Shown here one piece after another: positions 29,713-31,936 of a stretch of 64,000 nucleotides of DNA. Source of the stretch: a bacterium (GTDB lineage: Bacteria; Bdellovibrionota; Bdellovibrionia; Bdellovibrionales; Bdellovibrionaceae); NCBI GenBank assembly GCA_019752925.1, contig JAIELP010000005.1:124001-188000 (forward strand), in the 5' to 3' direction. A program made the translations under genes and the position numbers. The notes under the pieces were generated by a model. The model ran no database searches and was not told the origin of the DNA. It saw only the letters and a list, made by a program, of their open reading frames with translations. Numbering within the stretch: position 1 is the stretch's first letter; each line of letters starts with the position of its first letter.

Positions 29713-30525
29713 ATGAATCAAGCCATTTTGTTTAAAATTGTACAGAGAAAATATAAATTCCGGAATCCGCAAAGTTTAACGGATATGCCGCAAAACTTTA
29801 TTTACACCGAAGAAGAGTTTGAATCGGCCAAAAAATATCTTCAGCAGCTGGATAGTAGTAACATCAAATACTCTTATCCGGGAAAATCTGATTATCCTTT
29901 AAAATTTTTGAAGATGAAGGAGCCGCCTTTATTTTTTGAATATATAGGCGAACCACTTTGGGAGCAGCTGGATTTTTTGTCAGTCGTGGGCTCACGTGAA
30001 ATTCATTGTTCAACCGAATCTTGGATGAAAGAAAATCTATCGGCCTTTTTAAATAAGATAAATGTCGGAATTGTTAGTGGTGGCGCAAAAGGTGTGGATC
30101 AGTTAGCGCATCTGATTGCAATAAAAAATCAGGCACCAACCATTTTTGTGTTACCGAGCGGCTTGCTTAATCTTTATCCGAAATCGCTTGAGGAAATACG
30201 CGAGCATTGTATGAATCAAGGGGTCTGTTTTGTTTCGGAGTTTGAACTACACCAAAAAATACATAAATCTCACTTTTATTTCCGTAATCGTCTGATAGCC
30301 GCCTTTGGTCAGCTCACTTTAGTGGCTCAAGCCTCACTCAAAAGTGGTAGCCTATTAACGGTTCATCATTGTTTGGAAATGGGTAGGCCTGTACTTACTG
30401 TTCCGGCTCATCCGGAGATGATAGGTTTTGAAGGAAATCTTAAATTAATGTTTGATGGAGCCTATTCAATCCGAAATTTTACTGACCTGCTTGATTTTTG
30501 GATGTCTGAGTCCTGCTCTAATTAG
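29713..30525 (+). CDS. dprA: DNA-processing protein DprA/Smf
   Basis: DprA binds incoming single-stranded DNA and loads RecA during transformation. The Rossmann-like core is recognisable: FLSVVGSREIHC, GIVSGGAKGVDQLAHLIA, FVLPSGLLNLYPK, FRNRLIAAFG and KSGSLLTVHHCLEMGRP followed by VPAHPE. The length of 270 implies that the C-terminal winged-helix domain of many DprAs is missing. The start at 29713 has only a weak ribosome site held in a hairpin; an in-frame ATG at 29785 is an alternative. It lies about 2.2 kb from the split comEC genes. Confidence 0.88.
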   Translation: MNQAILFKIVQRKYKFRNPQSLTDMPQNFIYTEEEFESAKKYLQQLDSSNIKYSYPGKSDYPLKFLKMKEPPLFFEYIGEPLWEQLDFLSVVGSREIHCSTESWMKENLSAFLNKINVGIVSGGAKGVDQLAHLIAIKNQAPTIFVLPSGLLNLYPKSLEEIREHCMNQGVCFVSEFELHQKIHKSHFYFRNRLIAAFGQLTLVAQASLKSGSLLTVHHCLEMGRPVLTVPAHPEMIGFEGNLKLMFDGAYSIRNFTDLLDFWMSESCSN

Positions 30526-30594: not shown

Positions 30595-30662
30595 AAAAAA
30601 AACTAAAAAAAACATAAAAAAAGTGAAATTTTCTAAAAAAAGCCTTTGAAAAATATGAAAAA
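30595..30662. promoter_or_regulatory. Phased A-tract (curved DNA) region with candidate -10
   Basis: A-tracts occur at 30595-30602, 30605-30612, 30616-30622, 30626-30632 (AAATTTT), 30635-30641, 30649-30653 and 30658-30662. Most are spaced about 10 bases centre to centre, the spacing that bends DNA. TATAGT follows at 30674-30679, about eight bases before the G-rich start of the candidate small RNA. The pattern fits an UP-element-like activator for a strong promoter. A -35 hexamer is not clear. Bases 30526-30594 hold only a short CCCTAG/CTAGGG inverted repeat. Confidence 0.6.
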
Positions 30663-30685
30663 CTAATTCTAAATATAGTTAAGGG

Positions 30686-30747
30686 AGGGGCGATGTGGTC
30701 AAGGATGACCCCGGTAGTACGGATGCTACTGCATCGTTCCGTTTTTT
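30686..30747 (+). ncRNA. Candidate small RNA with two A-N-GGAU hexaloops (CsrA/RsmA-type)
   Basis: Folding by hand gives a three-way junction. P1 pairs 30687-30695 with 30732-30740 (nine pairs, two G-U). P2 pairs 30697-30700 with 30707-30710 and has the hexaloop AAGGAT. P3 pairs 30713-30718 with 30725-30730 and has the hexaloop ACGGAT. Six Ts follow at 30742-30747, so P1 or an alternative ACGGA/TCCGT stem can terminate transcription. The P2 loop TCAAGGATGA matches the known CsrA/RsmE target A/U-CANGGANG-U/A exactly; P3 differs by a U-G closing pair. A TATAGT box lies upstream. No known riboswitch family was recognised. Confidence 0.6.
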
Positions 30748-30775: not shown

Positions 30776-31873
30776 CTAATTCCAAGACTTTCTAAGATGA
30801 TAAACGCCGAACAGAGTAAATAATATATTTGGCAGCCATAAGCCCAGCCAAGTCGCGATTTGGTTAGACCTTACCAATGATTCAAAGCTTAAGTAAACGA
30901 TCCAGTAAACGATGATAAAGCCTACTGAGAATATAAATCCGGAAGACTTACCACTGCGTCGGTTTGTTACAATTCCGAAAGCTAGGCCCAGAACACAAAA
31001 TACCATACAAGCAACAGATAAAGCAGCTCGCTTATGATATTCGATATCATACTCTTTGCGCTTTTCAGAAGAGAATCCACTGTTATTTCGAAGAGACTGT
31101 AATTCGCCTAAATTTAGCGATGAGGCGGTTTTTTCTTTTTCCTTTAACTTGATAGGGTCGCTGAGCATTACGTCGTAGGAGTCGAAATTAATAACAGTAT
31201 GAGACTCGCCCTTGCGGTGAATTTGTCCTTTAAACATGCGCAGTAAAACGGAGTGTCCGGGGTGAGTTTCATCGGGGATAATTTGGCCCTCAGTTGCTAC
31301 AATAGTTAAAGGAGCATTCGGATTTTTTTCGTCATAAATAAAAATATCACTCAGCACTCCGGTTTGTGAGTTGACTTTATTGGCGTAAACCACCATATCA
31401 AAAAAGCCTTCGGAAAAGGTTCCTTCGCGTATAGATGCAGCTGCTTTTGTGTTACCCAAGCGGTTAATTAAAACCTCAAATTGACGATTTCCCCACGGAG
31501 CCAGGTAAAAAGATGTTTGCGACGAAATAATTGTAATAATAACCGCAAATACAAGTGCGGGAAGTATAATAGCACCGGTGTTAACTCCAGAAGATTTAAA
31601 AGCTATAATTTCTGAATCAAGAGAGAACCTGTTATAGGTTAAAAGCACGGCGAATAATAAACTCATTGGCAGCAGCATGGGTAAAAACGAAATGCTCATA
31701 AAGCCCATGATTTTTACCATGGTCGTCATTTTTATACCGTGAACCAGTAAAAACTCAGTTAGGCGTAACGCCTGGAACATCAAAAGTACGGTGATGAATA
31801 CAAAGACACCCAGCAAGAAGCTGGGGATTATTTCTGATAAAAGATAGCCAAAAACCCGTCTATTTTGAAACAT
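30776..31873 (-). CDS. lptF: LPS export permease, LptF/LptG family
   Basis: This inner-membrane subunit of the LptBFG transporter extracts LPS from the inner membrane. It has the family layout of three N-terminal helices, a periplasmic beta-jellyroll-like region of about 180 residues (including EGTFSEGFFDMVVYANKV and ILRMFKGQIHRKG-like segments) and three C-terminal helices. The region EKRKEYDIEYHKRAALSVAC before the fourth helix is typical. ATG 31873 is preferred to the TTG three bases earlier. The partner permease is not in the window, so LptF versus LptG is not certain. Confidence 0.85.
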   Translation of the reverse strand: MFQNRRVFGYLLSEIIPSFLLGVFVFITVLLMFQALRLTEFLLVHGIKMTTMVKIMGFMSISFLPMLLPMSLLFAVLLTYNRFSLDSEIIAFKSSGVNTGAIILPALVFAVIITIISSQTSFYLAPWGNRQFEVLINRLGNTKAAASIREGTFSEGFFDMVVYANKVNSQTGVLSDIFIYDEKNPNAPLTIVATEGQIIPDETHPGHSVLLRMFKGQIHRKGESHTVINFDSYDVMLSDPIKLKEKEKTASSLNLGELQSLRNNSGFSSEKRKEYDIEYHKRAALSVACMVFCVLGLAFGIVTNRRSGKSSGFIFSVGFIIVYWIVYLSFESLVRSNQIATWLGLWLPNILFTLFGVYHLRKSWN

Positions 31874-31936
31874 CAAGGTCTATGTTAAACAATTTCTTTG
31901 CACAGGTCATGGGGCGTCTTCTACAATAGTAGACCA

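What the first reader, a model, noticed from the sequence alone, without database searches (positions are those of the whole stretch)
30686..30747. Compact candidate CsrA/RsmA-binding small RNA with two A-N-GGAU hexaloops
In a gap with no convincing gene, about 62 bases fold by hand into a three-way junction closed by a nine-pair stem and followed by six Ts. Both arms end in hexaloops, AAGGAU and ACGGAU. The first arm reads TCAAGGATGA, an exact match to the established CsrA/RsmE recognition element A/U-CANGGANG-U/A; the second differs by a U-G closing pair. A GGGAGG at the 5' end adds another GGA. Known sequestering RNAs (CsrB, RsmY/Z) are much longer; a two-site three-way junction would be a new minimal form. 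Binding by CsrA is inference.
Basis: partly seen in the sequence, partly recalled or inferred. Interest (0 to 1): 0.85.

Follow-up and report, generated by a model that had tools for sequence, protein, structure and literature searches.

The report
Tiny conserved predicted CsrA-binding RNA
A roughly 60-base RNA gene, kept in many bacteria of the class that includes the predator Bdellovibrio, folds so that two loops display the signal that the regulator protein CsrA binds, which suggests a minimal RNA trap for CsrA in bacteria that also carry its protein antagonist FliW.

Summary
The feature is real. At 30683-30747 a promoter-like site is followed by a three-way-junction RNA ending in its own U-tract. 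Its loops read AAGGAU and ACGGAU, and their GGAs start 18 nt apart. Full-length homologues were found in 99 of 143 genomes of the class (62 of 66 in the family of Bdellovibrio and Pseudobdellovibrio). Stems covary, while the loop letters A-N-GGA are kept. The 19-codon frame is broken in 5 of 32 family sequences. CsrA matches 105 of 105 high-quality class genomes and FliW 97 of 105. Neighbouring genes differ between families, so it is a free-standing gene. Rfam has no significant match, and the 2013 list of eight attack-phase sRNAs of B. bacteriovorus HD100 does not include it. Best reading: a small RNA that holds one CsrA dimer across two loops and titrates it. Expression and binding are inferred, not shown. 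Against it: 10 of 80 distinct copies have only one GGA, many class genomes with CsrA lack a detectable copy, and the near-invariant closing stem is unexplained. Novelty: a minimal variant of the Csr/Rsm sequestering-RNA kind, outside Gammaproteobacteria and beside FliW.

The parts
30620..30645 (+). A-rich element upstream of the promoter, similar in the family
   Evidence: Family alignment: AAARTGAAA...TRAAAAAAG...TTTG pattern in most of 32 sequences; role as an UP-like element is inference
30646..30675 (+). Promoter-like site: TTGAAA (30646-30651), 18 nt, TAAATA (30670-30675); TATAGT at 30674-30679 is an alternative -10
   Evidence: Sequence. The consensus scan did not report it
30683..30747 (+). 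The RNA, about 62-65 nt including U-tract
   Evidence: Covariance model match 91.5 bits; ends inferred from the promoter-like site and U-tract
30687..30696 (+). P1 closing stem, 5' strand
   Evidence: Pairs with 30731-30740; 98.1% of cells paired in 32 sequences
30697..30710 (+). Arm 1, loop AAGGAU at 30701-30706
   Evidence: 4 pairs, 100% of cells paired in 32 sequences; GGA at 30703-30705
30713..30730 (+). Arm 2, loop ACGGAU at 30719-30724
   Evidence: 6 pairs, four with changes on both sides; GGA at 30721-30723
30731..30740 (+). P1 closing stem, 3' strand
30742..30747 (+). U-tract that makes the RNA its own terminator
   Evidence: Sequence; T-rich columns in homologues
29713..30525 (+). Upstream gene, DprA-like; neighbour, not part of the RNA
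   Evidence: PF02481 E 1.4e-49; same neighbour in the family
30776..31876 (-). Convergent downstream gene, LptF/LptG-like; neighbour, not part of the RNA
   Evidence: PF03739 E 6.2e-85; same neighbour in the family

Best explanation
A free-standing, non-coding small RNA of about 62 nt, made from its own promoter and ended by its own closing stem plus U-tract. Each of its two arms presents an A-N-GGA loop, and the GGAs start about 18 nt apart, so that one CsrA dimer can hold both at once. By occupying CsrA it relieves CsrA-controlled mRNAs: a minimal, one-dimer version of what CsrB or RsmY/RsmZ do with many sites. Shown by computation: the conserved gene, its fold, conservation of the loop letters against changing stems, the absence of a conserved reading frame, and the presence of csrA. 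Inferred: expression, CsrA binding, the 1:1 bridge, and titration as the outcome.
For: Full-length homologues in 99 of 143 class genomes (after setting aside G095 and G099); 96 of the 99 have a CsrA match, the other three (G081, G090, G114) being under 90% complete. Covariation: 10 double-changed cells in 5 pairs, 98.0% paired, 0 of 500 shuffles as high. Outside the family the GGA columns of arm 1 hold 2.0, 1.7 and 1.8 bits while its stem columns hold 0.03-1.0; in arm 2 the A, G, G, A columns hold 1.5-2.0 and N 0.27. GGA spacing is 18 in 44 of 61 copies with exactly two GGAs; a review gives 18 nt as optimal for a CsrA dimer on two sites (PMC3856055, passage). The genome's CsrA keeps the HREE segment. 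Six small genomes without a FliW match keep CsrA and an RNA match.
Against: No expression or binding data. Of 80 distinct copies, 10 have only one GGA between the P1 strands, and in two of these (L158, L159) that GGA lies in a stem. About 10 of 30 distant copies do not fold alone into the two-arm junction. 42 of 143 class genomes gave no R2 match, and most of them have CsrA, so CsrA does not need it. The near-invariant P1 core is not explained by CsrA. One dimer per RNA is a weak sponge unless abundant.
Confidence: 0.66

Rival explanations
1. A CsrA-bound RNA whose main job is base-pairing: the invariant 5' segment and stem is a seed for target mRNAs, and CsrA serves as stabiliser or chaperone.
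For: GGGAGGGGCGAUG is invariant in 44 of 44 distinct family copies, and P1 core letters stay fixed on both strands elsewhere, more than a clamp needs. Base-pairing sRNAs that also bind CsrA exist (McaS, GadY; PMC7652899, passage).
Against: The segment is locked in the closing stem and terminator in the predicted fold. No targets were sought.
Confidence: 0.15
2. A structured RNA that binds some other protein or ligand, the GGA loops not being CsrA sites.
For: No binding data; P1 is conserved beyond need; copies with one GGA exist.
Against: Loop letters follow the A-N-GGA code with a free N, spacing fits a CsrA dimer, csrA is present in all high-quality genomes.
Confidence: 0.13
3. Only a transcription terminator between the convergent dprA and lptF genes.
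For: Stem plus U-tract between convergent genes in the family.
Against: In other families it lies beside other genes in various orientations, has a promoter-like box at its start, and conserves loop letters that a terminator does not need.
Confidence: 0.03
4. A small protein gene (19 codons).
For: An ATG follows a purine-rich stretch at a plausible distance.
Against: Codon 2 is a stop in L032, and L016, L017, L030 and L033 carry frameshifts; the stop position is not conserved.
Confidence: 0.01

Closest known systems
CsrB/CsrC and RsmX/RsmY/RsmZ sequestering RNAs of Gammaproteobacteria
   Same: Non-coding, free-standing, GGA in hairpin loops; weak chance-level resemblance to the Rfam rsmX model including the shared stretch GUCAAGGAUGA (11.1 bits, E 6.5)
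   Different: Two loops and about 62 nt instead of many sites (CsrB has 22 GGA; PMC7652899, passage; rsmX model is 114 positions); different phylum; no sequence homology shown; coexists with FliW
McaS and GadY, base-pairing sRNAs that bind CsrA
   Same: Few GGA sites, short (PMC7652899, passage: at least two GGA motifs)
   Different: E. coli RNAs; base-pairing role not tested here; no homology shown
FliW
   Same: The known CsrA antagonist outside Gammaproteobacteria; encoded in most of these genomes
   Different: A protein, acting without occupying the RNA-binding pocket (PMC7652899, passage)
Attack-phase sRNAs of B. bacteriovorus HD100 (APsRNA1-7, merRNA; PMC3627812)
   Same: Small RNAs of the same group of bacteria; APsRNA1 also shows GGA hairpins
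   Different: None of the 8 listed RNAs lies at this RNA's HD100 position

Membership tests
Csr/Rsm sequestering RNAs (by function) | GGA motifs presented in hairpin loops | tested here: met
   Both loops in the window; kept across relatives with stems changing; exceptions with one GGA
Csr/Rsm sequestering RNAs (by function) | many CsrA sites per RNA | tested here: not met
   Two in 61 of 76 anchored copies, one in 9, three or four in 6
Csr/Rsm sequestering RNAs (by function) | csrA gene in the same genome | tested here: met
   PF02599 E 3.1e-25 in the own genome; 96 of the 99 genomes with the RNA
Csr/Rsm sequestering RNAs (by function) | non-coding, own transcription unit | tested here: met
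   Frame not conserved; promoter-like box and U-tract, varied neighbours; transcript itself not shown
Csr/Rsm sequestering RNAs (by function) | binds and antagonises CsrA | not testable with these tools
   Needs gel shift, pull-down and genetics
Rfam CsrB/RsmX/RsmY/RsmZ families (by descent) | score at or above the family's gathering score | tested here: not met
   No gathering match in the window; rsmX 11.1 bits against 56
cis-acting leader or riboswitch | conserved position upstream of a regulated gene on the same strand | tested here: not met
   In the family the downstream gene is convergent; elsewhere orientation and distance vary
small protein gene | conserved reading frame | tested here: not met
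   Stop at codon 2 in L032, frameshifts in four others, of 32

The most novel reading that the evidence does not exclude
A class-wide, one-dimer CsrA decoy RNA that works in the same cells as FliW and persists where FliW has been lost: an independently evolved RNA branch of Csr control in predatory bacteria and their kin, whose loops co-change with CsrA.
Probability: 0.45. Interest if true: 0.86.

Novelty: new variant of a known kind. Interest (0 to 1): 0.72.

Why it matters
[quoted passage not shown] If this RNA binds CsrA, it makes that question directly testable in B. bacteriovorus, a predator with a sharp switch between attack and growth. Its small size would also make it a clean model for one CsrA dimer bridging two sites.

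Tried and rejected
Rejected: small protein; plain terminator of dprA; riboswitch or leader; antisense to lptF, since the RNA ends before the lptF stop in the window and lptF was not found beside the copies from other families. Extra gene copies suggested by short DNA matches: of nine such loci, four gave model matches of at most 13.1 bits and five gave none. Short R2 matches of 34-49 nt (in L167-L172 and L166:3784-3825) are simple terminator hairpins without arms and were not counted.

Led nowhere: a count suggesting that GGCGA stems are preferred in terminators is biased, because many loci were chosen with a model containing that stem. Phage records hold nothing similar. The consensus promoter scan reported other sites but not this one. 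The covariance models were run only within the phylum; the one wider scan was an exact pattern over genome contigs (39 stretches; nearly all named as Bdellovibrio kin, and L120, L128, L129, labelled otherwise, carry dprA and/or lptF beside the RNA). No record named HD100 is among the 39 although the G059 copy (sequence) fits the pattern, so that scan is incomplete. One literature search for CsrA antagonists in Deltaproteobacteria returned nothing, which says little.

Full report
What is there. At 30683-30747, between a dprA-like gene and a convergent lptF/lptG-like gene, lies GGGAGGGGCGAUGU, an arm with loop AAGGAU, an arm with loop ACGGAU, the returning stem and six Us.

Chance. Fold energy alone is ordinary (z -1.55, 12 of 200 shuffles at least as good). 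The loops are not: the window has two A-N-GGA-N hexaloop hairpins of 4 or more pairs, both here, and one of 100 shuffles has any pair within 30 nt.

Homologues. A DNA search of 59 genomes gave matches at E 1.1e-6 or better in 32, all among the 37 of the own family. A covariance model of those 32 (R1) matched 91 of 143 class genomes at E 0.1. A wider model (R2, 42 sequences) matched 107 of 368 phylum genomes at E 0.01: 101 in the class, of which I set aside G095 and G099 (short or partial), leaving 99 of 143, and six outside the class, of which only G207 shows arms (G363 was not looked at). By family: 62 of 66 in the own family, 37 of 77 elsewhere. The weakest counted are G101 and G109 (26.6 and 27.0 bits). 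A more sensitive pass over 40 of the 42 class genomes without an R2 match gave nothing above 21.7 bits; the 14 matches I looked at, in 13 of the 30 loci, were not convincing homologues. In G029 and G030 the 400 nt downstream of lptF show no such RNA by eye. The own genome has one copy; the next match is 13.1 bits, E 6.

Structure. In the 32 family sequences 98.0% of pair cells are standard and 5 pairs change on both sides, reached by 0 of 500 shuffles. In the 42-sequence set 90.1% are paired with 47 double-changed cells (0 of 500), but the count of pairs with a double change (8) was reached by 39 of 500 shuffles, and arm 1 is paired in only 71.5% of cells, partly through poor alignment of that arm. 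P1 never changes on both sides in either set. Of 30 distant homologues folded alone, about 20 give a two-arm junction as minimum-energy structure and about 10 do not (my reading).

Loops. Among 80 distinct sequences (from 87 matches; 44 family, 36 other), the stem columns of arm 1 outside the family hold 0.03-0.3 bits on the 5' side and 0.4-1.0 on the 3' side, while its GGA columns hold 2.0, 1.7 and 1.8. In arm 2 the loop columns A, G, G, A hold 1.6, 1.5, 1.5 and 2.0, and N holds 0.27. In the family the GGA letters of both loops are invariant, N of loop 2 takes all four bases, and N of loop 1 takes A, C or G with a bias to A. The alignment was fitted to R2. This is the A-N-GGA code of CsrA/RsmE sites (consensus recalled and given in the finding). 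In one search, 76 of 80 sequences could be anchored: 67 have two or more GGAs between the P1 strands and 9 have one; of the 4 not anchored, three visibly have two and one (L160) has one. GGAs were counted wherever they fell; in L158 and L159 the one GGA is in a stem. Of 61 with exactly two, the spacing is 18 in 44, 19 in 10, 17 in 3, and 15, 20, 21 and 22 once each. A review gives 18 nt as optimal, with a range of 10-63, for two sites of one dimer (PMC3856055, passage); it may measure distance differently from my start-to-start count.

Not a protein gene. Of the 32 family sequences, L032 has a stop at codon 2 and L016, L017, L030 and L033 carry frameshifts.

Own gene. In the family, wherever the script found the RNA it also found dprA upstream on the same strand, or convergent lptF downstream, or both; L016, L086, L128, L130, L132 and L138 show only one of them, and eight loci (L008, L012, L023, L072, L073, L122, L133, L139) were not scored because the script's anchor missed a variant stem. 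In the 29 fetched loci from other families neither gene was found within the stretch (up to about 2.5 kb each side), and neighbour orientation varies.

CsrA and FliW. CsrA matches 134 of 143 class genomes and 105 of 105 high-quality ones; FliW 120 of 143 and 97 of 105. Of the 99 genomes with the RNA, 96 have a CsrA match; G081, G090 and G114, all under 90% complete, do not. Six genomes of 1.2-2.0 Mb without a FliW match keep CsrA and an RNA match (G101, G102, G109, G110, G124, G125; four of them at least 90% complete); in G075, G082 and G094 the missing FliW may be a gap in fragmented assemblies. In G101 and G102 both loops have lost GGA, and CsrA has IRSE/VRSE in place of HREE; G109 and G124 each have one GGA and QRGE and QREE; but G110 has QREE with two GGAs, and one-GGA copies also occur in f10 (for example L091 from G058, whose CsrA keeps HREE). 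The co-change is suggestive only.

Known or not. No Rfam match at gathering scores in the window; the best sRNA match at low threshold is rsmX, 11.1 bits, E 6.5. G059 has the length of B. bacteriovorus HD100 (3,782,950, recalled), and merRNA's published coordinates in it carry a c-di-GMP-I match (54.3 bits, E 3.1e-11, just under the gathering score), so its coordinates are taken as HD100's. The RNA is there at 2,374,938-2,375,008 minus. Table 2 of PMC3627812 (section 16 read, other passages seen) lists 8 attack-phase sRNAs, none at that place; the study followed up only intergenic regions more than 4-fold up in attack phase. Library searches for Bdellovibrio with CsrA and sRNA, merRNA, small RNAs and RNA-seq, CsrA, or sRNA since 2014, and for CsrA with three-way junction, listed no title or abstract start describing it (listings only, 20 of 26 shown; most subscription papers are not held).

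How it likely works. Inference: transcription gives a short, self-terminated, compact RNA; one CsrA dimer grips both loops; CsrA is withheld from mRNAs. One dimer per RNA means that abundance must be high; the A-rich element upstream fits strong expression but proves nothing. The near-invariant P1 core is the main loose end and keeps a second role open.

Noticed in passing
L226:376-582 (G059:C1:499375-499581, APsRNA1 of B. bacteriovorus HD100): This known 207-nt attack-phase RNA of unknown function shows GGA in several hairpin loops (ACAUGGACGU, AUCACGGAGUGAU, GUGCAGGAUGCAC) with covarying stems (9 of 56 pairs double-changed in 11 of the 20 fetched loci), matches 41 of 59 relatives, lies about 4.6 kb upstream of csrA and has no Rfam match at E 0.1: it looks like a multi-site Csr-type RNA. 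No comparable cluster stands out in the 8.7 kb that end at the start of csrA in the window's genome (one weak cluster).
   Followed up: partly
L157:1804-1950 (G207, another class of the phylum): Four GGA hairpins in a row, the first two preceded by GGGAGGGGCG as in this RNA, just upstream of and into a small ORF (1900-2262) with a DksA/TraR-like zinc finger by eye (no family scan): possible CsrA-controlled leader.
   Followed up: partly
csrA leaders in L212, L220, L221, L222, L225: In 5 of 20 csrA genes looked at, the start codon is preceded by TTTGACNNGGANGTTGAAGGAG, which could be a CsrA site plus Shine-Dalgarno for autoregulation.
   Followed up: no
window 1-64000: Only 2 A-N-GGA-N hexaloop hairpins in the whole window against a mean of 9.6 in dinucleotide shuffles; possible avoidance of stray CsrA-like hairpins, or an effect of coding sequence.
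   Followed up: no
L166:1927-1978 (G099): A possible diverged copy: GGUGAUGG...ACAGGAU...AGCAAGGAAGCU...CCAUCACC, with P1 changed on both strands but no U-tract directly after; not counted as a homologue.
   Followed up: partly
30687-30696 with 30731-30740 and homologues: The P1 core CGAUG/CAUCG is near-invariant on both strands in 80 distinct copies, more than pairing needs; unexplained.
   Followed up: partly
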